DNA from: Cerasicoccus sp. TK19100
Lineage (GTDB): Bacteria > Verrucomicrobiota > Verrucomicrobiia > Opitutales > Cerasicoccaceae
Length of the DNA: 64,000 nt
Assembly (NCBI RefSeq): GCF_027257155.1
Contig: NZ_JAPWDU010000005.1
Location: 186,001-250,000, forward strand
Reading direction: 5' to 3'
Shown here: positions 48,646 through 62,353 of the stretch, in pieces
Layout: the number at the start of each line of letters is the position of its first letter
Numbering within the stretch: position 1 is the first letter of the stretch
Program-made: the position numbers and the translations under genes
The notes under the pieces: model-generated
What the model was told of the DNA's origin: nothing
The model's database searches: none
Seen by the model: only the letters and a program-made list of their open reading frames with translations

Positions 48646-49689
48646 TTAAGAGAAACGGACAATGCCTTGCTTGGCGGCTGCCTCTTCCGCGCCATCGAGG
48701 TAGCGCTGGATTTCGGCACCACGGGCGAAGTCGGGCATGTCCTGAACACCGGTCTCGACTGCCTTGGCGAAGCGCTCGTAGATATTAGGCGTTTTGCCGG
48801 TGTAGAGGCTTTGCCAAGGGGTGGTTTTGCCGTCCTGGATTTCGCAGAATTCCAGCATTTCGTAACTTTTATCGAGGTCGATGCGCAGGGCACCTCGGTC
48901 GCCGTGGATCGATACGCTGACGGAGTTCAGGTGGCCGGTGGCGAAGCGTGTGGCGGTGATGACTCCGGCGGCTCCATTGGCAAAGCGAACGTTGAGGATC
49001 GCGGTGTCGTTGGCATCGAGAGTGTAGTCGCCAATCTTGCCGCCCTCAGCCTTGTCGAGCGTGGGCAGCATGGCCTGCATTTCGGCAATGGGACCCACGG
49101 GCAGAGTGGCGAAATCCAAAATGTGCACGCCGACATCCCCGAGGACGCCCTTACTGCCGTGTGCTTGCGAGAGACGCCAAAGCCAGCCGGGCTCTTCGGA
49201 CCAGACGCCCCATTCATTAGTCGTCAGCCAGCTCTGCAAGTAATTGCCCTGCACGTGGCGGATGCGGCCCAGTTTACCATCGGCGACCCACTGTGCTGCG
49301 AGCTGAATCGCGGAGCTATTGCGGTAGCTGAAGTTGACCATGTTAATCACGCCAGCGGACTTTGCCGCGTCGGCCATCTTTTGCGCATCGGAGTAGCTGG
49401 TGGCCAGTGGTTTTTCGCAGAGCACATGCTTACCTGCAGCCAGCGCCTCCAGCGAAAGCGGGCAGTGGGAATTATCCGGGGTGACGATGCTTACCGCGTC
49501 GACCTGCTCCTTACTGTAAAGTGCTTCTGTGCTCGTGTAAGCCTTGGCTATGCCGTGCTTCTGGCAGTAAGCGCTTGCCCGCTGTTCGTCGAGATCGACG
49601 CCGGCCACGATTTCCACGCCTGGTATTTTGGCAAAATTCAAGGCGTGGCTGTTCGCCATGCCGCCAGTCCCAATGATTGCAAGTTTCAT
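48646..49689 (-). CDS. Gfo/Idh/MocA family oxidoreductase
   Basis: A 347 aa protein. The N-terminal NAD(P) Rossmann fold has [16 protein letters not shown] at residues 4-19 and [15 protein letters not shown], with the catalytic Lys in EKP at about residue 95. The C-terminal alpha/beta domain has [12 protein letters not shown], where Asp and His belong to the usual GxHxxD-type site. Such enzymes oxidise or reduce sugars, inositols or related polyols. The substrate is not indicated. It has about 210 bp of intergenic DNA downstream to lpxK, so the two are probably separate. Confidence 0.9.
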
Positions 49690-49809
49690 TGGGATACTGG
49701 CTTACCGAATCTAGCTCGTCGCAAGCAATGCAATACTGAATTTGATTCGTTTGGTTCCCTTGTGCCGTAATCGTCTTTGAGGACGCAGGTTAGGTGGACA
49801 CGCGTTTCT

Positions 49810-49851
49810 AAATGAGAAAAGAAAAACGGCGCCCTGCTAACAGGACGCCGT
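49810..49851 (-). terminator. Rho-independent terminator for glnII
   Basis: The arms acggcgccctg (49826-49836) and caggacgccgt (49841-49851) pair with a single mismatch around ctaa. On the minus strand the stem is followed by a T-rich run (complement of gagaaaagaaaaa). It lies about 30 bp after the glnII stop codon. Confidence 0.85.
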
Positions 49852-49881
49852 CGCGTAATAGTAGTGGTGTTATAAAATCCC

Positions 49882-50904
<1,023 letters not shown>

Positions 50905-51000
50905 AATCAGTGTTGTTGGTTAGATAGATATGGCAGAAATGCGGTCCGTTTAAGGACTGCGTTCCCGACTATCGGGTTTTTATATGAAAAGGCACGTCGA

Positions 51001-51020
51001 AAAGCACCTCATGTGCCAAA
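51001..51020 (-). promoter_or_regulatory. Candidate sigma-54 (-24/-12) promoter of glnII
   Basis: On the minus strand the sequence reads ttggcacatgaggtgcttt. It has the -24 element TTGGCAC and a -12 element ending GC with exactly 10 bases between GG (51017-51016) and GC (51005-51004), as in the TGGCAC-N5-TTGC consensus; the only core mismatch is G for T before TGC. It would start a transcript near 50992, leaving a leader of about 88 nt with two short hairpins before the start codon. Nitrogen genes are classic sigma-54 targets. Confidence 0.5.
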
Positions 51021-51198
51021 TAGGTAATTTTTCCCTGAGAGGCGTTCATTTTGCATTATTGTGAGCGAATTTTACCACTTTTGGCCGAGGTGATGAATTT
51101 TGCTCATGGATGTATGGCCTAGTATCAGATCGAAATCAAGTTAACACACCGTGCTTTCTCTCTGGAATTGCTGCACGGGTTTTGTATAACTTCAGCCA

Positions 51199-51642
51199 AT
51201 GCAGGGTAATAAAGACACTAAGCAGGCCAAGGTGCGCATCGGTTACGATGGCCTGGTGCGCAAAAATTTCCTCGGCCCCATGGCCAAAGAGCGGTTTGAG
51301 AACGAACTGCGCGTGCTGAAATACCTCGAAGAGAAAGGCTGCGAGTTCGTGCCGCGTGTGGTCGATTACAAGGCCGAGACGTTGTTCATGGTCACGACCA
51401 ATTGCGGCAAAGTCGTCGAGAAGATCAGCGACTCTAAGCTGAAGCAGATTTTCGACGAGTTGGAAACCTACGGCGTGCGCCACGAGGACCGATTTGCGCG
51501 CAACGTGACCTACAGCGCGCAGTTGGGCCGGTTTTGCCTGATCGATTTCGAGTTCGCCACCATTCTGGAGACTGGCGAGGGGCTAACCGTGGAAGAGGTG
51601 ACTGAATATCGCCTCGAACAACAACGCAGGCAGGCCGACTAA
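51199..51642 (+). CDS. Minimal protein-kinase-fold protein paired with a PP2C phosphatase
   Basis: A 147 aa protein. It has the catalytic-loop pattern of a small Bud32/RIO-like kinase: YGVRHEDRFARNV (H95, D97, N102) followed by FCLIDFEFA (DFE at 116-118 in place of DFG). The N-terminal lobe is very short (RKNFLGPMAKERFENELRVLKYLEEKG...VPRVVDY): it keeps a likely ATP-lysine and the alpha-C type Glu but has no glycine-rich loop. The family is well under the usual 200+ aa for such kinases. It overlaps the phosphatase gene by one base, so the two are co-translated. It could be a true kinase or a kinase-fold binding protein. Confidence 0.65.
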   Translation: MQGNKDTKQAKVRIGYDGLVRKNFLGPMAKERFENELRVLKYLEEKGCEFVPRVVDYKAETLFMVTTNCGKVVEKISDSKLKQIFDELETYGVRHEDRFARNVTYSAQLGRFCLIDFEFATILETGEGLTVEEVTEYRLEQQRRQAD

Positions 51643-52475
51643 TGGGCGCGCAGAATCCAACCGAGCCGACCGGCCTGCGCTGGTGGGGAATGACTGACAA
51701 GGGCCGTTTCCGCCAAAATAACGAAGACGCTTTCCTGGGGCTTGAGCTCGACGGCCGCGAGGTCTTCCGGCTGGGCAAAGTCGGTGAAGCCAAATTTGAG
51801 CAGGGCGACTTCATCTTTGCCGTCAGCGATGGGATGGGCGGAGCCAATGCGGGGGAGTTCGCCAGCCGCATTGCCGTGGAGAAAATTACGCAGCTCTTGC
51901 CGTCGGCCTTTCGCTTGCGGGCGACGGGATTTCGTCGCGGCGGCACAGATTTCCTGGCCGAGGTCATCGACCAGATTCATGCTGAAATGCGATGGCAGGG
52001 CCGGGCATACGAGGAAACCTCCGGGATGGGAGCCACGTTGAGTATGTCTTGGTTCACGCCCGAGAAGGCCTATTTTGCTCACGTCGGCGATAGCCGGATT
52101 TACCACCTGCCCAAGGACGGCGGCTACACGCAGATTACCCACGACCATACGCACGTCGGTTCGCTGGTTCGCTCGGGCCAGTTGACTGAGCTGCAGGCGC
52201 GTATGCATCCGGCTAAATCAATGCTCCAGATGGCCCTCGGGGGCAAGGTGGACAACGTCGACCCGCACTTGGGCTCAGTCATTTATGAGCCGGGTGACTG
52301 GTTCGTCTTCTGTTCGGACGGCATCTCTGACGGCGTCAGCTCACGCAAGATTGAGGACCTCATTCGCACGCCCTCGCAGGTGGCGATTAAATACCCTCCC
52401 GCAGAGCGCCTGATCAAGGAGGCGTGGGATTCCTCCCGCGACAACATGACGGCAGTCGTGGTGGAGGTCTTTTAA
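51642..52475 (+). CDS. PP2C-family serine/threonine phosphatase
   Basis: A 277 aa protein. The metal-binding residues of PPM/PP2C phosphatases are present: NNEDAFLG (D29), VSDGMGGANAG (D63, G64), HVGDSRIY (D150), CSDGISDGV (D226) and DNMTAVVVEV (D267). It removes phosphate from Ser/Thr with Mn or Mg. There are no transmembrane helices or extra sensor domains. The ATG shares a base with the stop of the kinase-like gene (taATG), so it very likely opposes the product of that gene. Confidence 0.92.
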   Translation: MGAQNPTEPTGLRWWGMTDKGRFRQNNEDAFLGLELDGREVFRLGKVGEAKFEQGDFIFAVSDGMGGANAGEFASRIAVEKITQLLPSAFRLRATGFRRGGTDFLAEVIDQIHAEMRWQGRAYEETSGMGATLSMSWFTPEKAYFAHVGDSRIYHLPKDGGYTQITHDHTHVGSLVRSGQLTELQARMHPAKSMLQMALGGKVDNVDPHLGSVIYEPGDWFVFCSDGISDGVSSRKIEDLIRTPSQVAIKYPPAERLIKEAWDSSRDNMTAVVVEVF

Positions 52476-52671
52476 TGTCGCTGCCCGCGCCACGCTGGAA
52501 TTGCCAAGCCTGAGCGCGGGTTGGTTTCACCATTTGCAGAGAAGGCGGCTCATGGCGTCGATTTTTCGCTGGATGATTTACTGATGATACCCGTGCCCGC
52601 GCGGAAACTTATCTATGGCAAGTAGCCGAGGTGACCGCCTTCGGGCTTGATCAGTAAAGCGCTCCTCGCTC

Positions 52672-53964
52672 ATGGTGGAGGCTTTCTCCATGAATCAGCG
52701 GAAGCGAAAACAAACCCGTCTGCAAGCCAAGCTCGCCAAGGGCAGTGGCATCGAGCGCCTGATGGACGACCTCGGTCGCGCCTTGGCGGAAGGAGCCGGG
52801 CACGTGCACATGCTCGGCGGCGGCAATCCTGCACCCATCCCGGAGGTTGCCCAGCGCTGGCGCACACTCATGCGGGAGATGCTCGACAGCGCGCCCGAGC
52901 GCTTCGACCGCATGCTCGGCGTCTATGACCCCCAGCAGGGGAACGGCCGTTTTATTCGAGCCGTGGCCAAACTGTTTAACGACGCCTACGGATGGGGGCT
53001 GACCGAGGACAATATTGTCATCACTAATGGTGGGCAGACGGCGTATTTTTACCTCTTTAATTTGCTCGCAGGCGAGGGCGAGGAGGGCTTGCAGCGAATC
53101 CTTTTTCCGCTGATGCCGGAATACATCGGCTATGCCGAACAAGGGCTGCATCCGGAGTCGTTTATCGCCGCCCAATCCATTATTGAGGAGCTACCGGGCA
53201 ATCTCTTTAAGTATAGAGTCGATTTCGACAATCTGCCCTGGGATGAGTCCATCGCCGCGGTCTGTGTTTCGCGTCCCACGAATCCGACTGGCAATGTGCT
53301 GACCGATGCCGAGGTCCAGCGTCTGCATCAGCTATGCACTGAGCGCGGTGCCTACCTGATCATCGACAATGCCTACGGAGCACCGTTCCCCGACATGATC
53401 TTCACGGATGTTCAGCCATTTTGGGGCGAGAACACCGTGCTGACATACAGCCTTTCCAAGCTTGGTCTGCCGGGCACGCGAACGGGCATATTAATCGGGC
53501 CGCCGGAAATTTGCCGCGCCATTTCGTCGATGAACGCCGTTGCCGGGCTCGCCAATGGCAATGTGGGGCAGTCGTTGACCCTGCCGTTGTTTGAGTCTGG
53601 AGAAATCATGACGGTGGCGCATGATGAAATTCGCCCCTACTATCAGGAGCGTAGCCAGCGCGCGGTCCAGATGGTGCATGAGGCGATGGACGGCGTGCCG
53701 TGCCGCGTGCACGTTTCGGAGGGCGCGCTGTTTCTATGGCTGTGGTTTCCGGGCCTACCGGGTGGTGCGGATGCGCTTTATGAGGATTTGAAAGAGGCGG
53801 GTGTGCTCGTCGTGCCCGGGCATTTCTTTTTTCATGCTTTGCCTGAGCCTTGGCCGCATGCCGAGGAGTGCATTCGCATCAATTACGCGATGAATATCGA
53901 TGCCTTCCCGGAAGCCATGCGGATCATGGCGGTCGTTGTCCGTGCGCGCTTTGAGCGCGACTAG
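52672..53964 (+). CDS. avtA: Valine--pyruvate aminotransferase-type PLP enzyme
   Basis: A protein of 430 aa, or 424 if it starts at the second ATG at 52690. It has the fold type I aminotransferase plan: ITNGGQTAYFYLF near 117-129, RPTNPTGN with N204, IIDNAYGAPFPD with D232 and Y235, the PLP lysine K263 in TYSLSKLGLPGTRTG, and R270. The N-terminal HVHMLGGGNPAPIPEV and overall length match AvtA, which makes L-valine from 3-methyl-2-oxobutanoate with alanine as donor. Related aspartate- or kynurenine-type enzymes cannot be fully excluded. It appears monocistronic. Confidence 0.85.
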   Translation: MVEAFSMNQRKRKQTRLQAKLAKGSGIERLMDDLGRALAEGAGHVHMLGGGNPAPIPEVAQRWRTLMREMLDSAPERFDRMLGVYDPQQGNGRFIRAVAKLFNDAYGWGLTEDNIVITNGGQTAYFYLFNLLAGEGEEGLQRILFPLMPEYIGYAEQGLHPESFIAAQSIIEELPGNLFKYRVDFDNLPWDESIAAVCVSRPTNPTGNVLTDAEVQRLHQLCTERGAYLIIDNAYGAPFPDMIFTDVQPFWGENTVLTYSLSKLGLPGTRTGILIGPPEICRAISSMNAVAGLANGNVGQSLTLPLFESGEIMTVAHDEIRPYYQERSQRAVQMVHEAMDGVPCRVHVSEGALFLWLWFPGLPGGADALYEDLKEAGVLVVPGHFFFHALPEPWPHAEECIRINYAMNIDAFPEAMRIMAVVVRARFERD

Positions 53965-54087: not shown

Positions 54088-54164
54088 GCGGGGCTAGCTC
54101 AATTGGATAGAGCACCTGACTACGGATCAGGAGGTTAGGGGTTCGACTCCCTTGCCCCGTGCCA
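54088..54164 (+). tRNA. tRNA-Arg, anticodon ACG
   Basis: A 77-nt cloverleaf can be folded completely. The acceptor stem is gcggggc/gccccgt and the D stem gctc/gagc. The anticodon stem is cctga/tcagg with loop ctacgga, so the anticodon is ACG at 54122-54124, whose A34 is normally edited to inosine to read CGU, CGC and CGA. The variable loop is aggtt and the T arm agggg-ttcgact-ccctt. The CCA end is encoded (54162-54164). The gene is followed by a decayed, repeat-bearing region and then the Wadjet operon. I found no second copy of its 3' end downstream that would mark an integrated element. Confidence 0.95.
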
Positions 54165-54682
54165 TTTGAGGTTTTTGAATCGCAGGCACTTAAATAATTC
54201 CTTGTTAGACAGAGGGTCGCGCAGTGCCAAGGGTTAAAGCTTTATAAGTCCCGCGAACATATGTTGCTCGGCACTGATCTCGGATATGCCTATTGGGTTA
54301 GTTGCTTTGATTTATCTTGATGTCGTTGTTAAGTTAGATAGGAGCAAAGGGATAGACTTGGCGTCATCTGTTAGATCATGTGTATGACCGCTTTTCTGCT
54401 CTTGCGGAGTGAGTGGCAACGGCGGGTAGTTGGGCCGCCGCATCGCGGTGATCGACAGTGCCTAGGCGGTCGCCGGAGATGGTGGTGCTCATCCACTCAG
54501 AGAAGCAGGCATATTTCGTGAATAACCGGAACCGGCTGCGAAATGCTGTCAGTTGCGCGGTGGTCTCTACGCCGACGCCATCAACTGCACCTCATCCATT
54601 ACCCAGAAGGCGTCTGAAGTTTGATGAGACTGTCTTGAGGAAGGCTTTTGTTGGAGGCTTAGCGTAGTTCGATACGCTATTA
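54165..54682. other. Non-coding interval after tRNA-Arg, nothing recognised
   Basis: Short reading frames exist in this stretch on both strands, but none has a recognisable motif, a credible start or compositional support. No promoter, terminator or duplicated tRNA end is evident. Together with the remnants further right it looks like decayed accessory DNA. Confidence 0.4.
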
Positions 54683-54809
54683 TTTAACCACGAAGGACAC
54701 GAAGAGCACGAAGGCTGAATTAAAGTAACGTTGAATCCCGCTAATGAGAAATTCCATAATATCCAAAGCTTTACAGGGCTCCGTACTCTTCGTGCTTTCG
54801 TGGTTAAAA
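54683..54809. repeat. MITE-like element with accacgaag terminal inverted repeats
   Basis: The left end reads tttaaccacgaaggacac and continues gaagagcacg. The right end, reversed, reads tttaaccacgaaagcac and continues gaagag. The two are inverted copies differing by a 1-2 base gap, and they enclose about 75 bp without coding capacity. Repeats built on accacgaagg-acacgaag units are familiar interspersed elements in environmental bacterial genomes, including Verrucomicrobiota. I see no target-site duplication with certainty. Confidence 0.6.
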
Positions 54810-55043
54810 CTCGTATAGTGCCAAGCTATCTGACCAAACGCTAAGATAGTTCTGCTTGCTCGGGCGATGTCTAATTGAAACACTACCGATGTTTAACCGT
54901 GACAGGGGCGGTGTCATTGCCGTGCATCGACAAAGGAATCTCCGACACGTGGTGAGGGAGTTGGGGATGAAGGAGGCGGGAGTGGGAGTCGACGGCTCCC
55001 GGGTTGCCGCTAGGCAGCGGTGTCGCTCACGTGTGTGGGGGCG

Positions 55044-55175
55044 CGGGTGAATGGTGAGGAAATGGTCCAAGCGTCCCACGGCAAGTCGTTGGGCGCGGGT
55101 GCGAACTTCGAGGAGGTAGGTACCCGCAGGCAAGTCGGTGGGGATGATGGCGAAGATTTCCTTGGAAGACGCCAA
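55044..55175 (-). pseudogene. Remnant of a DUF4469-type protein (C-terminal end)
   Basis: The translation SSKEIFAIIPTDLPAGTYLL followed by EVRTRAQRLAVGRLDHFLTI matches the end of DUF4469 / HU-like proteins, which close with a segment of the type IP-x-LPAG-x-Y-x-LEVRT...GxLxxxLT. Only about 40 residues remain. The frame runs straight on without the stop that should follow the LTI segment, and the domain's N-terminal part is absent. Its upstream edge joins the WYL remnant, in another frame, near 55160. Confidence 0.6.
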
Positions 55176-55329
55176 AGCTGTCGACGAGCAATTTGGAAAT
55201 GGAAAAATCTTTGGGGCGGCGAAAGCGTTTGCCCGTCTAGGGTTGTCCTTGAATGCGGTTCAACACGAAGGTGCGCAGCTCGCCGCGCCCGAGGTCGTGG
55301 GCATCGCAGTGGTCGCGGGGAGATAATTT
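55158..55329 (-). pseudogene. Remnant of a WYL-domain transcriptional regulator
   Basis: Reading the minus strand from about 55329 gives SPRDHCDAHDLGRGELRTFV, then LNRIQGQP, a TAG stop at 55237-55239, and TGKRFRRPKDFSISKLLVDS followed by FGVFQG. This is the core of WYL-domain regulators (AhDl-RG-lRTF-L-RI...TgkrF-rPkdF...sFGvf). The WYL tripeptide itself is lost by a small deletion before AHDL, a stop interrupts the domain, and both the N-terminal HTH and the C-terminus are missing. WYL regulators are frequently associated with phage and plasmid defence genes, and the Wadjet operon starts about 270 bp away. Confidence 0.65.
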
Positions 55330-55382
55330 CCGATCAAACGCAAGGGAACAATGCTAAACTGAGGCGCTTGTACTGGGGATGC

Positions 55383-55489
55383 TTTTTAACAGGAAGATGG
55401 GGAAGAACAGGAAGCGAAGCGGCAACCGCATTTGAACAGAAGGCAGGAAATGCCCTGTATCGTTGCTTCGCGCTCTTAGTGGTTTAAAC
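55383..55489. repeat. Second, degenerate MITE-like element
   Basis: The left part begins ttttaacaggaagatgg and has purine-rich gaagaacaggaagcgaag units. The right end, reversed, reads tttaaaccactaagagcgcg. It resembles the element at 54683-54809 in ends and size but is more decayed. The two flank the WYL/DUF4469 remnant. Confidence 0.4.
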
Positions 55490-55560
55490 GGCATTGGACC
55501 TCCATCACGGCATGGTTCGTTTTTATTAGTAGACATGGTCCCTGTATGTCCGATCCCTGG

Positions 55561-55569
55561 TGTTAAAAT
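55561..55569 (+). promoter_or_regulatory. Possible extended -10 promoter of the Wadjet operon
   Basis: Tgttaaaat matches an extended -10 (TGn plus TAAAAT, 5 of 6) and would start a transcript near 55576, leaving a leader of about 28 nt before the jetA ATG at 55604. No good -35 is seen, as is usual for extended -10 sites. A short inverted repeat gacat/atgtc lies just upstream, around 55531-55550. Confidence 0.35.
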
Positions 55570-55603
55570 ACATGTGCGATTTATCTTTATTAACTGAAAA
55601 CGG

Positions 55604-57121
55604 ATGCATTGTATGGACGATATGGAGTTGGACCCGGTGCTTGCTCGTAACTTGATTTTGGCGCGCCAGAACAATGCTGCGTGGCTGCTGTTGTCGGCGC
55701 GGCGTGGTCCGTTGATGCTTGCCAGTTTGAAGCCGTTGTTTGAGCGCGGCGTGGCGGAAATTCCGCAGGAAGATGCGCGCGAGCAACTCGCCCGGATACT
55801 CACGGAGTATGCGAACGACCCGGCGTTCGAAATCGACACCGACGACTTTCGTGCGTTGGCCCGCAAGGAGCTGCGGGAGTGGATTAAGCGCGACTTACTG
55901 GTGGAGCGCGGCGGCTCCATTCTGGCTACGGACTCCTTGCAGGCAGCCTTTGGTTTTTTGGAGAGCATCACGGGACGGGTGATGACGACAACGGCTTCGC
56001 GTCTGGCCACGGTCCAGCAGAAAATTGAAACCTTGCAAGCGAACTTGAACCCCGACCGCGAAAGCCGCGCGGCTTTCATCCGGGGTAAGATTGCCGCTCT
56101 TGAAGCTGAATTGGCGCGCGTGGAGGAAGGCGAATTTGAAGTGCTCGACGGTGATCGGGCGACTGAAGAGATTCGCGAACTCTACAGTTTGGCAATGAGC
56201 TTGCGGTCAGATTTTCAGCGAGTCGGCGATTCGTATCGAGAGGCGGATCGCGCGTTGCGGCAGGCGATCATTGGCGATGAACAGAACCGTGGCGAAGTTG
56301 TGCAGAAGCTGTTGTCGACCGATGACGCCCTGCTGGAAACGCCGGAGGGACGTGTATTTGACGGCTTCTACCGGCAGGTTCAGCACGGGACGGATTTGGA
56401 GGTGATGCGGGCGCGCTTGCGGGAAATCCTCGGCAACGAGGCGTCCGCTCAGGCGCTGGATCGTCGTCAAGCGCAGGACTTGCGGCTGTTGGTGTCGCGG
56501 CTGATCACTGAGTCGGAGAGCGTCTTGCGTGCCCGTTCGCAGGGAGAGCGCGACGTGAAGGGCTTTATCAAGTCAGGCTTGGCGGCGGAGAATCACCGGG
56601 TCGGCCAATTGCTGCAACAAATTTTGGAATCCGCTTTGGACATTGACTGGCGGCAGCAATCCATCCGGCGGACGCCATCCCCGCTACCACCAGTGGCACC
56701 GTCTCTGCCAAGCCTGCCGCTTCCTGAGCGGCTGTGCTACAAGGATATAGCGGAAGCACTGGAGGGTGCGCTGATTCTGGAGCAGCAACAAGGCAGCCTG
56801 AACGATCTGGAAGCGGACTTTATCGCGTGTGACGACGAGCTGGACACGCTGGCGCTTTATGGGAAAACACTTGAGCGCCTGCGTGAAAGGGGGCATGCGC
56901 ACCGACTTGGGGAATTGGCCGAAGCATTACCACCGGAGTATGATGTTGAGACGCTGGTTTATTGGTTGTCTCTGGCGCGGGAGACGGAGTGTGTGGTCGG
57001 GCCGGATTCTGAGGCGTTTACTTTGCGGGACAAAGCAAATGTGGAGTCGGCCTTCGTGGTGCCGGTGATTGCGCTCGATCCTGAAGCAGTTGCAACCATT
57101 GATCCGGAGCATTTGGCATGA
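55604..57121 (+). CDS. jetA: Wadjet anti-plasmid system protein JetA (DUF3375, kleisin-like)
   Basis: A 505 aa protein; later ATGs at 55613 and 55622 are possible starts. Its pattern fits JetA of type I Wadjet, a DUF3375 protein acting as the kleisin-type linker of the SMC complex. It has an N-terminal winged-helix-like part (ARQNNAAWLLLSARRGPLMLASLKPLF), long helices with coiled-coil character (residues about 130-330) and a C-terminal proline-rich linker followed by a globular end. Identification is strengthened by the following three genes in the exact Jet order. JetA joins JetB and JetC into a ring that extrudes DNA and lets JetD cut small circular plasmids. The stop overlaps the jetB start (ATGA). 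Confidence 0.9.
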   Translation: MHCMDDMELDPVLARNLILARQNNAAWLLLSARRGPLMLASLKPLFERGVAEIPQEDAREQLARILTEYANDPAFEIDTDDFRALARKELREWIKRDLLVERGGSILATDSLQAAFGFLESITGRVMTTTASRLATVQQKIETLQANLNPDRESRAAFIRGKIAALEAELARVEEGEFEVLDGDRATEEIRELYSLAMSLRSDFQRVGDSYREADRALRQAIIGDEQNRGEVVQKLLSTDDALLETPEGRVFDGFYRQVQHGTDLEVMRARLREILGNEASAQALDRRQAQDLRLLVSRLITESESVLRARSQGERDVKGFIKSGLAAENHRVGQLLQQILESALDIDWRQQSIRRTPSPLPPVAPSLPSLPLPERLCYKDIAEALEGALILEQQQGSLNDLEADFIACDDELDTLALYGKTLERLRERGHAHRLGELAEALPPEYDVETLVYWLSLARETECVVGPDSEAFTLRDKANVESAFVVPVIALDPEAVATIDPEHLA

Positions 57122-57861
57122 GTGACTACTTCGACGAACAATTGCGGCCGCCGCCAGAGGCGGATGATTCGGCTCCTCCTACTGAGGATGGATCGCCGGG
57201 CTCAATTGAGCCCACGACTGAGGAAGGCGCGGCACCGGGCACGAGCGGACCGATCAAGGTCGCTGCTCAGGAATTGCTGAAATATGGTTTGGTGGAGCAG
57301 GCCGCGAAGCCGAATCTCTACCGCGAACTGCGGCAGAATCCAAATGAGCTCCAGCGCATTCTGGAACCGTTCGACTTGGTGATGGAATTGGATGACGTGC
57401 GCGGGATTGCGTTTCTGGCCGTGCCGACGGATGAGGAAGCCGATGATGATGATCCATGGCAACATCCTCTCGTGCGGCGTCAACGACTGACAACTGATCA
57501 ATCCCTGCTAGTGGCGATCCTGCGGCAAAACTTTGTCGCTTACGAGCAGACGCATGGCATCGGCGCCTCAGATGCTCGCATCGACTTGGAAGAGTTGCAG
57601 GCGCAGTTCGATGTATACCTAGGGAACTCGGGCAGCGATAAATCCGACGTCGAGCGCCTGCGCCGCGTCATCACTCAGTTGGCGGCGCACGGGGTGGTGA
57701 GCGAGCCAGATAAAGAGAATCAGGTGACGATACGGCCGATCATTGTGCACTTGGCGAACCCCGAGCACTTGGCAATCCTGCTGGCTCATTTTCGTGATTT
57801 GGCAGAGAAAACGAAGCGGGTTGACGCAGACGAGGAATCCGAAACGGAGGAGGGCGAATGA
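57118..57861 (+). CDS. jetB: Wadjet protein JetB (DUF4194, KITE-like subunit)
   Basis: A 247 aa protein. The first ~50 residues are acidic and probably disordered (PPPEADDSAPPTEDGSPG). The folded part, residues about 55-225, fits the DUF4194 family with tandem winged helices: LLKYGLVEQAAKPNLYRELRQNP, FDLVMELDDVRGIAFLAV, TTDQSLLVAILRQNFVAYE and VERLRRVITQLAAHGVV. KITE-type subunits dimerise and bind the kleisin JetA. The gene overlaps both neighbours through ATGA junctions, which should give balanced synthesis of complex subunits. Confidence 0.9.
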   Translation: MSDYFDEQLRPPPEADDSAPPTEDGSPGSIEPTTEEGAAPGTSGPIKVAAQELLKYGLVEQAAKPNLYRELRQNPNELQRILEPFDLVMELDDVRGIAFLAVPTDEEADDDDPWQHPLVRRQRLTTDQSLLVAILRQNFVAYEQTHGIGASDARIDLEELQAQFDVYLGNSGSDKSDVERLRRVITQLAAHGVVSEPDKENQVTIRPIIVHLANPEHLAILLAHFRDLAEKTKRVDADEESETEEGE

Positions 57862-60800
57862 GATCGGGCGGTGAGGATATGTTGTTTAACTTGGAGCGTG
57901 CAGCGTTCCGATTACAGCGCTTAGAGGTGTTTAACTGGGGGCCGTTTTCGGGAATGCACGCGGCGGAGATTGATGCGCACGGCACGGCGATTATCGGGAT
58001 GACCGGTAGTGGCAAGACGACGCTGGTCGATGGCTTTGTGACGCTGATCGCCGAGCAGCCGAAATACAACCTGGCCTCGACTGGCGGCCACGAAAGCGAC
58101 CGCAGCCTGATCTCCTACGTGCGCGGTGTCGTGGGCTCGGGCAACGACAGCGGCGACGCGGCGCACATTTCGCGCAAGGGCAAGACGACTACCGGGATCT
58201 GTGCAACCTACAGCGACGGCCAAGACGAGCTGCGGTTGGGCGCGATTATGTGGATCGATGGCGGGAGCTTTTCGCCCAGTGACTTAAAGCGAGCCTGGAT
58301 GTTTTCGCGGGACCCGCGCCACTCGCTGGAGCAGTGGTTGGCGATTCACAGTCAGGGCGGGTTGCGTCTGCTCAAGCAGCAATTGCGCGATGATAACGAA
58401 GCGCAAATCTTTGACGCATCCACGGGGGGCAAACGCGCTTACCTTGCCCGGGTGCGGAGCTTCTTCGAGGTGGCCGACAATGCGTTTGCCCTGTTAAACC
58501 GTGCGGCGGGGCTCAAGCAGCTCAACAGCATTGACGACATTTTTCGGAATCTGGTGCTGGATGACCATGCGCAGTTTGACCGCGCGGCGGAGGTTGCGAG
58601 TGAGTTTGATAACCTTGCCGAAATCCACGCAGAGTTGGAGACCGCGCAGCGTCAGCAGCAATCGCTTTGGCCGGTGGAAAAGCAGTTCGACGCCTACGAG
58701 CAGCATCGCGCCGAACTGGAGCGCAAGCGTCGGTTGGTGGGCTTGCTGCCTGTGTGGTTTGCGTTGGAAGGCAAGCGACGGTGGCAAACGCGAGCGGTGG
58801 AGCTGGAGACGGATTTTCGTGCGCGGGACAAGGCTTTGCTCGAAGCCGAAGAGCAGGTGAAGCACGCCGGCAGCGAAGTCGAAACGCTTTACGAAAAATA
58901 CGTCCATGCCGGTGGTGGGGATGTGGAATCGCTGCGCAAATTGATCGAGGTCAACCGGAAGGAAGCGGCGCGGCGACGGGATCAGGCGTCCGGGTATCAA
59001 GCGACTTGTCGGTTGTTTGACTTGCCGGCCGAGATCGAAACTGAGACATTTGCCGAGACCCAGCGGCGAGCTGAAGCGGTCTTGAAGCACTTGATGCAGG
59101 ATAAGGAAGCGTCGGGCGAATTGACATATCGGCGAGGCGCGGCGGTATCGCAGATCGAAGCCAATGTGAAGGAGCTGAAAGCGGAGTATGATGCGGCGAA
59201 GGATAGGCCGGCTTCGAATATTCCTGGCACCTTTCAGCGTTTTCGTGATTTGTTGGCGAGTGAATTGGAACTGAGCCCGGACGCCCTGCCCTTTGTGGGC
59301 GAACTGGTGCAAGTCTTGGAACAGGAGCAACCCTGGCGTGGCGCGATCGAGCGTGCGCTGGGTGGCAATCGGCTGCGTTTACTCGTGCCGAAAGTTTGCT
59401 TGCGGGCTGCGCTGCGTTGGGTGAACGCGCATCAGCATGGGCTGCATATTCGCCTGTTGGAAGCGGATCCGGAGCAGGCACCGAATGCGGATTTTTTTGC
59501 CGATGGCTATTTGCGCAAGCTGGAGTTTAAGCTGCATCCTCTGCGCGAGGCGATGAAGGCATTTCTGGCCTCGTATGATTTGCACTGCGTCGATTCGACG
59601 GATGCGCTGGAGCATACTCCGCATGGGCTTACGCGGGAAGGGTTGATGTCCGGCAAGCGAGGGTTGTTTGAGAAGAAAGATCAACGGCGGTTAGAGCAGG
59701 ATTGGTGCACGGGCTTCAGCAATCGTGATCGTCTTGCCGACTTAACCAAACAACTGGAAGAAGCTAGCGCGAAGCATGACGAAGCAGCGAAGGCGTTCCA
59801 AGCTGCGCGTGAGCATCATGTGCGTTTGGAGGAACAAACGCGCCTGGTGGAGGGCTTGCGTAAGTTGGAATTTGAAGCGGTCGATTACCCGTCGCAGGAG
59901 GCGGAAATCCTGCGCAACGAAAGTAAGCTCCGGGAGTTGACCGACCCGGAGTCCGACGCAGGAAAGGCGCTGCAAGTTTACGAAGAAGCGAAAAAGAGAA
60001 AGGAAAAACTGGAGGCAAAAGCCAAGGTGTGTCTTGGTGCAGCGGTAGCGGCTGAAGGCTTGCTGAAAAGTGCGCAGCAACGCATCGAAGCTTGCAATAA
60101 AAGTGCGGGGGATGGTCTGTCTTTTGAAGATCAGCGTTTCGCCGAAGAGCACCTGGCGGTTGACGCACAGTTGAAAGCGGAGGGCCTTGCTGAGGAAGAG
60201 CGTCGGCGTGTCGCCGAACTGGCGAAGGCGATCGAGGCCGGGCAGATCAACCTAACCAATCGGCATGCTAATTTGGTGCGGGCGATGGAACACGCCAAGC
60301 TACAGGATACCGGAGCCTTGGCCGAAGTGGGAACCGAGTTGGCGGACATTCCGGCCTATCTGGAGCGATTGCGTGTGCTCACCCATGAGGCTTTGCCGGA
60401 CAAGCGCAAACGCTTCCTGGAATACCTTACGAAATCCTCGGACCAAGGGGTCACTCAGCTGCTGGCGGCGGTGAATGAAGAGGTTACGCGAATCAAGGAA
60501 CGCATTGACGATTTGAATGAAAGCCTGGAAAGCGTGGATTTCAAACAGGGGCGTTACCTGCGACTGACTACTCAGAATGTGCTGCACGATAACCTTCGTG
60601 GGTTTGAGCGTGCGCACAAGCAACTGCGTGCAGCGGCGCTGCGCCACGATGATCACGAAGGGCATTTCAAGGCCTTGCAGCACATCGTGCAGTTGCTCCG
60701 TGATGCCGTGGACAAGAAGCACACAGTCGGCGCACGGGCTTTGCTCGATCCACGCTTCCGGTTGGAGTTTCACGGCTTGGAAGTCGATCGTGAAAGCGAC

Positions 60801-61205
60801 GCCGTGGTGGAGCGCTTTAAGGGATCGCAGGGTGGCTCTGGTGGCGAAAAGGAAATCATCGCGAGCTACATTTTGACGGCTTCCTTGTGTTATGCGTTGA
60901 GTCCGGAAGGGGGACGGTTCCCACTGCACAGCACGATAGTGCTGGATGAAGCTTTTTCGAAAAGCTCACGCGCGGTGGCGAACCGCATTGTCAACGCGCT
61001 GCGGGAGTTTAAGCTGCACCCGATCTTTGTGACGCCAAATAAAGAGATGCGTCTTTTGCGTCAGCACACACGGTCGGTGGTTTACGTCCATCGTAAAGGT
61101 GCGCGGGCCACGCTGGCGTCGATCAGTTGGCGAGAGCTGGAATCGCGCGTTGAAAACCGCAGCGGCGATGAAACGAGTTGGAACAACGAACCAGTTGCGC
61201 CATGA
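57858..61205 (+). CDS. jetC: Wadjet SMC-like ATPase JetC
   Basis: A 1115 aa protein; the ATG at 57879 is a possible later start. The N-terminal head has LQRLEVFNWGPF and Walker A GMTGSGKT (47-54). Two long coiled-coil arms rich in Glu, Ala, Leu and Arg flank a hinge-like region (about 440-560). The C-terminal head carries the signature QGGSGGEKEII (about residues 990-1000) and Walker B IVLDEAFSKS (about 1027). This SbcC/MukB-like plan is that of JetC, the motor that pairs heads on ATP binding and extrudes DNA loops until it meets a closed small circle. Motifs are intact, so the ATPase should be active. Confidence 0.93.
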   Translation: MRSGGEDMLFNLERAAFRLQRLEVFNWGPFSGMHAAEIDAHGTAIIGMTGSGKTTLVDGFVTLIAEQPKYNLASTGGHESDRSLISYVRGVVGSGNDSGDAAHISRKGKTTTGICATYSDGQDELRLGAIMWIDGGSFSPSDLKRAWMFSRDPRHSLEQWLAIHSQGGLRLLKQQLRDDNEAQIFDASTGGKRAYLARVRSFFEVADNAFALLNRAAGLKQLNSIDDIFRNLVLDDHAQFDRAAEVASEFDNLAEIHAELETAQRQQQSLWPVEKQFDAYEQHRAELERKRRLVGLLPVWFALEGKRRWQTRAVELETDFRARDKALLEAEEQVKHAGSEVETLYEKYVHAGGGDVESLRKLIEVNRKEAARRRDQASGYQATCRLFDLPAEIETETFAETQRRAEAVLKHLMQDKEASGELTYRRGAAVSQIEANVKELKAEYDAAKDRPASNIPGTFQRFRDLLASELELSPDALPFVGELVQVLEQEQPWRGAIERALGGNRLRLLVPKVCLRAALRWVNAHQHGLHIRLLEADPEQAPNADFFADGYLRKLEFKLHPLREAMKAFLASYDLHCVDSTDALEHTPHGLTREGLMSGKRGLFEKKDQRRLEQDWCTGFSNRDRLADLTKQLEEASAKHDEAAKAFQAAREHHVRLEEQTRLVEGLRKLEFEAVDYPSQEAEILRNESKLRELTDPESDAGKALQVYEEAKKRKEKLEAKAKVCLGAAVAAEGLLKSAQQRIEACNKSAGDGLSFEDQRFAEEHLAVDAQLKAEGLAEEERRRVAELAKAIEAGQINLTNRHANLVRAMEHAKLQDTGALAEVGTELADIPAYLERLRVLTHEALPDKRKRFLEYLTKSSDQGVTQLLAAVNEEVTRIKERIDDLNESLESVDFKQGRYLRLTTQNVLHDNLRGFERAHKQLRAAALRHDDHEGHFKALQHIVQLLRDAVDKKHTVGARALLDPRFRLEFHGLEVDRESDAVVERFKGSQGGSGGEKEIIASYILTASLCYALSPEGGRFPLHSTIVLDEAFSKSSRAVANRIVNALREFKLHPIFVTPNKEMRLLRQHTRSVVYVHRKGARATLASISWRELESRVENRSGDETSWNNEPVAP

Positions 61206-62353
61206 AATCTCCTGACGAGCTTGCCGCGAAGCTGGCCCGACAATGGGAAAACTCCGATTTGCGTGAGCAGCGTTTGACTCAGCGTGAAGCTTGGCCGGTG
61301 GAGATTTCCATTGGCCGGCCCACTGCGTCGGAGATTCGTGAAGACCTGGACGGAGTGCGCCAACACATTCAAATGTGGAAAAAGATATCCATCGGTGAAG
61401 TCGAGTGGCGCAGTGAACGTTACCGTGACACGGCGGAGACGGTGGAAATACCGCGCGCTTGGCGCGTGAGAAGTCCTTCGGAATGGGTTGCAGCTGCTGG
61501 CGCTGAAGGAGTATCCAGAGAGTATACCGCGATGAAAAAACTATGTGCTGAAACGAATGTGCGGTATCATCGACTTTGGATTCGCCAGCGTTCACTGTGG
61601 CGGGAGAAGCCTCTGGAGGATGCAATACTCTCGGCTGCTATCGCCGATAAACTGACTCCTGGTTGCGCTAATGGCGCGCCGCTCAGAACACTGTCCGCCG
61701 CTGGCAACGACACTAAGTTTTTTGAGCGTAATCGTGCGTTGTTGATTGCGTTGTTGGATGTTAGTTTCAAAGGCGAGGCGGGTCGGATGGGCTTGGAGTC
61801 TTTTCTTGGTGCGATGCTAGAAGGTGAGCAATGGCTGCTGTTGGCGGATCTCGACGGAAGCTTATTGTCTTTTGAACAATTGCGGGTGCGCGCATCGGAA
61901 TTAGCCGAGCGCGTAAGCTTGCCGGGGAAACGGATCTTGGTCGTGGAGAATGAGCGCTGTCTCTATCTACTGCCGAAGTTACCCGATACGCTGGTAATTC
62001 TCGGAGCGGGTTTGAACTTGAGCTGGTTGTCCGCGTCAGCCTTTGTCGATAAGCCTATGGCTTACTGGGGCGACTTGGACACCTGGGGCCTTGTGATGCT
62101 CAGTCTAGCCCGTAGCCATCAGGCGCATATTGAAGCGCTGATGATGACCCGCGCGGTGTTTGATCAGTATGTGGATCGAGCCGTTCAAGAGCCGGTCAAA
62201 GCACGGTTGCCGGATACCCATATGTTGACGGATCAGGAGGTGGAGCTCTTTGCTTTTCTTCAGGCGCATGAGAATGCCCGTTTGGAGCAGGAGTTTTTGT
62301 CTGCTGAAAACGTGGCTGATGTGCTGCATGCGTGGATTGAACTCAAGTCTTGA
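61202..62353 (+). CDS. jetD: Wadjet nuclease subunit JetD (DUF3322/DUF2220, Toprim)
   Basis: A 383 aa protein starting at the ATG at 61202 that overlaps the jetC stop (ATGA). The N-terminal DUF3322 region has SPDELAAKLARQWENSDLR, followed by VEISIGRPTASEI and VRSPSEWVAAAG. The C-terminal DUF2220 region is Toprim-like: ILVVENERCLYLL (acidic E near residue 249) and MAYWGDLDTWGLVML with the D-x-D at about 290-292, the metal site used in DNA cleavage. The remainder ends in helices. With all four subunits intact the system is likely functional. Confidence 0.92.
   Translation: MKSPDELAAKLARQWENSDLREQRLTQREAWPVEISIGRPTASEIREDLDGVRQHIQMWKKISIGEVEWRSERYRDTAETVEIPRAWRVRSPSEWVAAAGAEGVSREYTAMKKLCAETNVRYHRLWIRQRSLWREKPLEDAILSAAIADKLTPGCANGAPLRTLSAAGNDTKFFERNRALLIALLDVSFKGEAGRMGLESFLGAMLEGEQWLLLADLDGSLLSFEQLRVRASELAERVSLPGKRILVVENERCLYLLPKLPDTLVILGAGLNLSWLSASAFVDKPMAYWGDLDTWGLVMLSLARSHQAHIEALMMTRAVFDQYVDRAVQEPVKARLPDTHMLTDQEVELFAFLQAHENARLEQEFLSAENVADVLHAWIELKS

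What the first reader, a model, noticed from the sequence alone, without database searches (positions are those of the whole stretch)
55044..55329. Fused remnants of a WYL regulator and a DUF4469 protein upstream of Wadjet
In one minus-strand frame the core of a WYL domain is readable, with the WYL residues deleted and a TAG inside. It changes near 55160 into a different frame encoding the end of a DUF4469-type protein. Two unrelated broken genes are joined directly. WYL regulators often control defence genes, so an ancestral regulator of this island may have been lost.
Basis: partly seen in the sequence, partly recalled or inferred. Interest (0 to 1): 0.6.

Follow-up and report, generated by a model that had tools for sequence, protein, structure and literature searches.

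The report
Remains of a lost Wadjet-side regulator
Next to an intact bacterial anti-plasmid defence operon lie the deleted remains of a regulator gene and a neighbouring gene, both of which are still whole beside the same operon in a related marine bacterium; it is a clear case of gene loss but an ordinary kind of event.

Summary
Window 54858-55302 (minus strand) holds shrunken remains of a WYL-domain regulator gene and a HU-like/DUF4469 gene. A same-genus genome, Cerasicoccus frondis NBRC 105381 (JAVDPC010000028.1, handle G002), carries both intact, in the same order and orientation, divergently upstream of a Wadjet operon 91% identical to the window's. Against it the window lacks 571 bp (joint 55294-55302) and 1585 bp (joint 55158-55165). 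The first loss removed the N-terminal part and the WYL motif; the second fused the WYL core to the DUF4469 tail. So the genes are neighbours joined by deletion, not strangers. Wadjet itself is intact and constrained (dN/dS 0.08-0.21). The WYL remnant still looks constrained, which suggests a recent loss (13 differences only). The module is more similar between the genomes than four neighbouring genes and lies at different sites, so it probably moved horizontally. The WYL search found no other WYL protein in this genome. That the WYL protein controlled Wadjet is inferred from position only: four other close Wadjet loci of the order show no homologue, and its homologues often sit elsewhere, sometimes near cas1. 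WYL regulators near defence systems, Wadjet included, are published. Interest is modest.

The parts
55294..55316 (-). Remnant of the first few codons of the WYL regulator gene (start region)
   Evidence: Corresponds to L010 8124-8146, the start of the intact 369-aa frame; the start region is altered in the window
55294..55302 (-). Deletion joint 1: 571 bp of the regulator gene (N-terminal part and WYL motif) absent relative to C. frondis
   Evidence: Overlap of two colinear alignments; L010 8138-8146 and 8709-8717 share 7 of 9 bases, 3 exactly at the joint
55166..55302 (-). Remnant of the WYL-domain core, with TAG at 55237-55239
   Evidence: 90% DNA identity to L010 8709-8853; 78% protein identity, E 4e-24
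55158..55165 (-). Deletion joint 2: 1585 bp absent relative to C. frondis (end of the WYL gene with its WCX domain, intergenic DNA, start and HU-like part of the DUF4469 gene)
   Evidence: L010 8846-8853 and 10431-10438 share 7 of 8 bases, 3 exactly at the joint
55000..55165 (-). Remnant of the C-terminal end of the HU-like/DUF4469 gene, frame lost near its end
   Evidence: Part of the 80% identical alignment to L010 10431-10761; Pfam DUF4469 19.6 bits; codon comparison
54858..54999 (-). Non-coding homology downstream of the DUF4469 gene; left limit of the shared module
   Evidence: blastn alignment ends at 54858
55317..55603 (.). Former divergent intergenic region between the regulator and jetA, retained
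   Evidence: Within an 85% identical alignment; alignment
55604..57121 (+). jetA (Wadjet type I), intact
   Evidence: PADLOC JetA1 E 3e-183; dN/dS 0.08 against C. frondis
57118..57861 (+). jetB, intact
   Evidence: PADLOC JetB1 E 1e-81; dN/dS 0.16
57858..61205 (+). jetC, intact
   Evidence: PADLOC JetC1 E 0; dN/dS 0.12
61178..62353 (+). jetD, intact; homology to the C. frondis locus ends at 62338
   Evidence: PADLOC JetD1 E 1e-149; dN/dS 0.21
54088..54164 (+). tRNA-Arg(ACG), left neighbour of the module
   Evidence: ARAGORN

Best explanation
A horizontally acquired module of Wadjet (jetABCD) with a divergent WYL-domain transcription regulator and a HU-like/DUF4469 gene downstream of that regulator lost the latter two by two internal deletions, probably between short imperfect direct repeats. 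What is left is a non-coding scar. Shown: the intact arrangement in a relative, the two joints, the intact and constrained Wadjet, and no WYL match elsewhere in this genome at the limits searched. Inferred: horizontal transfer as a unit, recent loss, and repeat-mediated slippage. Inferred with less certainty: that the WYL protein acted on the shared jetA/regulator intergenic region, most likely as a repressor as in BrxR-type regulators, so that Wadjet here now runs without that control.
For: Colinear homology from jetD through jetA to the DUF4469 end, interrupted only by the two joints. Intact WYL+WCX protein and HU-HIG/DUF4469 protein in C. frondis. No WYL-domain match at E 1e-3 in the window's genome, and only the remnant when the intact protein is the query. 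jetA-D dN/dS 0.08-0.21; WYL remnant 9 synonymous against 4 non-synonymous differences, ratio 0.12. Synonymous difference: jetA 0.21 against 0.42, 0.70, 0.72 and 0.85 for four genes left of the tRNA. Module and tRNA-Arg lie on different contigs in C. frondis.
Against: Regulation of Wadjet is not tested. In 0 of 4 other close Wadjet loci of the order was a homologue of the WYL protein found nearby. Its homologues lie in varied places; 9 of 80 genomes have one within about 13 kb of cas1. Microhomology at the joints is short: 3 exact bases each, and random pairs reach 3 or more in 6.6% of cases for one joint. No operator-like inverted repeat stands out (8-base arms in C. frondis, reached by 50 of 200 shuffles; window 6, reached by 197 of 200). 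The WYL remnant figure rests on 13 differences; jetD has a higher synonymous difference than jetA-C (dS 0.47 against 0.24-0.26), so the module is not uniform.
Confidence: 0.85

Rival explanations
1. The WYL and DUF4469 genes belonged functionally to the neighbouring type II CRISPR-Cas locus (cas9-cas1-cas2-array in C. frondis) or to nothing nearby, and only travelled beside Wadjet; their loss left Wadjet regulation untouched.
For: In C. frondis the DUF4469 gene is followed by Cas9, Cas1, Cas2 and an array. The PADLOC WYL models it matches are labelled as CRISPR-associated. 9 of 80 genomes have a WYL homologue within about 13 kb of cas1. 0 of 4 other close Wadjet loci of the order show the WYL gene.
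Against: The shared module ends before the CRISPR genes, and no Cas1 was found in the window's genome. The WYL gene is divergent from jetA over a shared intergenic region retained in both genomes.
Confidence: 0.35
2. The fused remnant still does something, as a short RNA or short peptide regulating Wadjet.
For: The intergenic region and remnant DNA have not been eroded beyond recognition. A 123-aa open frame (54804-55175) covers the DUF4469 tail.
Against: The N-terminal part, WYL motif, WCX and HU domains are all gone; a stop, frame loss and indels are present. The DUF4469 tail shows dN/dS near 0.7, a rough figure.
Confidence: 0.04
3. The joints are assembly errors and the genes are whole in the organism.
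For: Only one assembly was available and reads were not held.
Against: Beyond the joints the remnants carry further damage: a stop, an altered start region, indels and frame loss in the DUF4469 end. The contig is 567,657 bases long.
Confidence: 0.03

Closest known systems
Wadjet type I (JetABCD) with a divergent WYL gene in Cerasicoccus frondis NBRC 105381 (JAVDPC010000028.1)
   Same: Same operon at 91% DNA identity, same WYL and DUF4469 genes in the same order
   Different: There both side genes are intact, the locus is followed by cas9-cas1-cas2 and a CRISPR array, and tRNA-Arg is on another contig
BrxR family of WYL-domain regulators of defence islands (PMC9122601; found passages and section 22 seen)
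   Same: A WYL-domain regulator beside a defence system; that paper reports co-localisation with Wadjet among others
   Different: Here it is broken; the intact relative has WYL and WCX domains and its best PDB match by sequence is PafBC. Membership in the BrxR family was not tested.
HU-like proteins with a DUF4469 Ig-like tail
   Same: The intact C. frondis gene matches HU-HIG, HU-DNA_bdg and DUF4469 over their cut-offs
   Different: Only the C-terminal tail remains in the window; five other DUF4469 places exist in this genome

Membership tests
WYL-domain transcription regulator | WYL domain over the Pfam cut-off | tested here: not met
   Remnant 15.3 bits against a cut-off of 21.8; intact relative 61.2 bits
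WYL-domain transcription regulator | Common descent with an intact WYL gene | tested here: met
   78% protein identity, E 4e-24; 90% DNA identity over 145 bp
WYL-domain transcription regulator | N-terminal (presumed DNA-binding) part present | tested here: not met
   Removed by the 571-bp deletion; that this part is a helix-turn-helix is from recall, no Pfam HTH match was returned for the intact protein
DUF4469 protein | DUF4469 domain over the Pfam cut-off | tested here: not met
   19.6 bits against 22.6, profile positions 62-88 only; intact relative 54.5 bits
DUF4469 protein | Common descent with an intact HU-like/DUF4469 gene | tested here: met
   80% DNA identity over 333 columns, of which about half is the gene and the rest downstream DNA
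Wadjet type I | Intact jetA, jetB, jetC, jetD in order | tested here: met
   PADLOC JetA1, JetB1, JetC1, JetD1
Regulator of Wadjet (BrxR-like role) | Control of the jetA promoter | not testable with these tools
   Needs binding or expression assays; no operator-like repeat above chance
BrxR family | Sequence or fold membership in the published family | not tested
   Only PDB sequence matches and Pfam domains of the intact relative were examined

The most novel reading that the evidence does not exclude
A Wadjet module with its own WYL regulator and a HU-like/DUF4469 partner travels between marine Verrucomicrobiota, and after arrival the control genes are discarded by selection-favoured deletion, leaving a constitutively active Wadjet.
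Probability: 0.15. Interest if true: 0.5.

Novelty: new member of a known kind. Interest (0 to 1): 0.3.

Why it matters
It gives a natural pair, Wadjet with and without its neighbouring WYL regulator, in two members of one genus, so one could ask whether loss of the regulator changes Wadjet expression or plasmid restriction. My paper searches on Wadjet with regulators listed few papers and I opened only one, so I make no claim on how much is known of Wadjet regulation.

Tried and rejected
Same-locus comparison at tRNA-Arg: the tRNA is in all 4 genus genomes, but window 54165-54900 has no blastn match at 1e-4 in the stretches that follow it in the three others, so that locus does not show the intact form. 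An att-like repeat of the tRNA end: in the window, apart from the tRNA itself, the rows shown are matches of 10-15 bases with E 0.035 or worse (list cut at 20 rows); in the next 17,900 bases of the contig only matches of 9-10 bases with E 1.8 or worse. Operator palindrome between jetA and the WYL gene: dropped, 50 of 200 shuffles reach it. A general WYL-Wadjet link: not borne out. The stretches around 4 other close JetA genes of the order gave, at E up to 1, one weak WYL match of 37 residues (E 0.058, about 7 kb from jetA) and one weak DUF4469 match (E 0.98), and 2 more distant JetA stretches and 2 plasmid stretches gave none; 2 further distant JetA stretches of about 4.3 kb gave none. The annotation of the two plasmid Wadjet loci shows no WYL gene. 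Only homologues of the C. frondis WYL protein were sought there, not all WYL domains.

Neighbours of 20 top-scoring WYL homologues outside the genus were listed by a simple ORF rule. A recheck by tblastn shows that the rule took a wrong frame for the WYL gene in 6 of 20 loci (L076, L079, L080, L088, L090, L091), so orientations there are void. One nearby frame from each of 10 of the 20 loci was scanned with Pfam: 5 had a family (SIR2, M13 peptidase, PD-(D/E)XK nuclease, aminotransferase, SAM synthetase) and 5 had none; none matched a Jet family. Two of the ten (from L080 and L090) come from loci with the wrong frame. Of 7 rows in the synteny comparison 3 (49689-50270, 49876-51024, 51437-51976; synonymous differences 0.03, 0.11, 0.40) were frames overlapping the other genes and were dropped; the 4 used are 49885-50919, 51190-51639, 51606-52472 and 52651-53961; one of the two further stretches fetched, L110, gave no row. 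In the cas1 survey 13 genomes with the weakest WYL hits were left out, because at most 80 handles are taken. Paper searches for DUF4469 and for Cerasicoccus with Wadjet found nothing; a search for WYL, CRISPR, regulator and pseudogene found 123 papers, the 10 listed not on the point so far as their titles show.

Full report
What is there. The stretch 54858-55302 on the minus strand lies between a tRNA-Arg gene (54088-54164) and an intact Wadjet type I operon, jetA-D, at 55604-62353. Translation shows a WYL-like core with an internal TAG at 55237-55239, and in another frame the end of a DUF4469-like protein. Family models alone are weak: Pfam WYL 15.3 bits and DUF4469 19.6 bits, both under their cut-offs, NCBIfam nothing, PADLOC WYL E 4.5e-6.

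The intact version. A DNA search of the 4 genomes of the genus found one other carrier, G002, in three colinear pieces; the remaining two genomes had none. G002 is Cerasicoccus frondis NBRC 105381, contig JAVDPC010000028.1, so the window is from a relative of it (Verrucomicrobiota, Opitutia, Puniceicoccales, Cerasicoccaceae). There (locus L010) jetA-D on one strand faces a 369-aa WYL+WCX gene, then a 291-aa HU-like/DUF4469 gene, then Cas9, Cas1, Cas2 and a CRISPR array of 24 listed repeats.

The two deletions. Window 55294-62338 aligns to L010 at 91%; 55158-55302 aligns at 90% and 54858-55165 at 80% to separate places further on. From the coordinates, 571 bp are missing at 55294-55302 and 1585 bp at 55158-55165 relative to L010. 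The first loss takes the N-terminal part and the WYL motif; the second takes the end of the regulator with its WCX domain, the intergenic DNA, and the start and HU-like part of the second gene. Each joint shows 3 exactly shared bases within an imperfect short repeat (7 of 9 and 7 of 8). Random pairs in this region share 3 or more in 6.6% of cases, so slippage between short repeats is plausible but not proved.

Selection and timing. Against C. frondis, dN/dS is 0.08 (jetA), 0.16 (jetB), 0.12 (jetC) and 0.21 (jetD; its dS of 0.47 is higher than the 0.24-0.26 of the others). The WYL core remnant (45 codons) has 9 synonymous and 4 non-synonymous differences, ratio 0.12; this suggests that most of the divergence built up while the gene was still under selection. 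The DUF4469 tail (51 codons) gives 0.68, but its end is frame-shifted and the figure is rough. These are small numbers.

Horizontal movement. jetA differs at 21% of synonymous sites between the two genomes. Four genes left of the tRNA differ at 42% (the 49885-50919 frame, which I recognise as glutamine synthetase from recall, no call), 72%, 85% and 70% (three overlapping frames were dropped, see Tried and rejected). The module also lies at a different place: in C. frondis tRNA-Arg is on contig C8 and Wadjet on C28. The shared block runs from 54858 to 62338, close to the end of jetD, and does not include the CRISPR genes; no Cas1 was found in the window's genome at E 1e-6. I read this as transfer of a Wadjet+WYL+DUF4469 unit; a common donor and transfer between the lineages are not distinguished.

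Was the WYL protein the regulator of Wadjet? Position favours it: divergent from jetA with a shared intergenic region kept in both genomes. The window's genome (97% complete) has no Pfam WYL match at E 1e-3, and the intact protein finds only the remnant there. Against: in the order, 6 of 372 genomes have a JetA at E 1e-30 or better. Of these, C. frondis has the intact WYL gene, the window its remnant, and the other 4 show no convincing homologue in the stretches fetched (one stretch, L094, holds only about 1.6 kb upstream of jetA). In the phylum sample, 92 of 387 genomes have a WYL homologue at E 1e-20 or better, the window's remnant included, and 7 of 387 a JetA at 1e-15 or better. Of 80 genomes checked for cas1 (78 with homologues, plus C. 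frondis and the window's genome; 13 weaker ones left out), 35 have a cas1 somewhere and 9, including C. frondis, have a WYL homologue within about 13 kb of it, counted by eye. So the family is not a dedicated Wadjet regulator, and a link to CRISPR-Cas is a real rival.

Literature. A paper on the BrxR family (PMC9122601; found passages and section 22 seen) reports that BrxR-family WYL regulators co-localise with many defence systems, Wadjet and CRISPR-Cas among them, and that the BrxR studied there is a repressor. A search for WYL domain, Wadjet and regulator listed 3 papers; a broader one listed 5; only PMC9122601 was opened. DUF4469 gave no paper. The arrangement is thus a new member of a known kind, here in broken form.

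Verdict. 'Unrelated genes joined' should read 'neighbouring genes joined by deletion', and control of Wadjet remains an inference.

Noticed in passing
window about 54680-54812: An inverted pair of CCACGAAGGACACGAAG-type repeats, a palindromic interspersed element. With up to one mismatch the pattern has 49 matches in the genome (27 forward, 22 reverse; some overlap within one copy) against 3 for the reversed control; at least nine inverted pairs lie about 90-190 bp apart. Copies also in C. frondis and another genus member.
   Followed up: partly
G000 C3:309808-310065 and C4:111306-111545: Two of the five DUF4469 places in the genome lie within about 0.6 kb of a copy of that repeat, and the window's DUF4469 remnant within about 0.3 kb; not tested against chance.
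   Followed up: no
L010 11170-17169 (C. frondis C28): A type II CRISPR-Cas locus (Cas9 1051 aa, Cas1, Cas2, 24 listed repeats with about 66-bp spacing) stands after the DUF4469 gene.
   Followed up: partly
L082 8268-8951, L085 8498-9151, L087 8815-9486: Divergent from the WYL homologue in three loci lies a 217-227-aa gene without a Pfam match; the three proteins are 52-58% identical, so this looks like a conserved WYL-linked pair of unknown role.
   Followed up: partly
L010 7964-7987: A degenerate half of the repeat family may lie in the jetA-WYL intergenic region of C. frondis (weak match, E 0.31).
   Followed up: no
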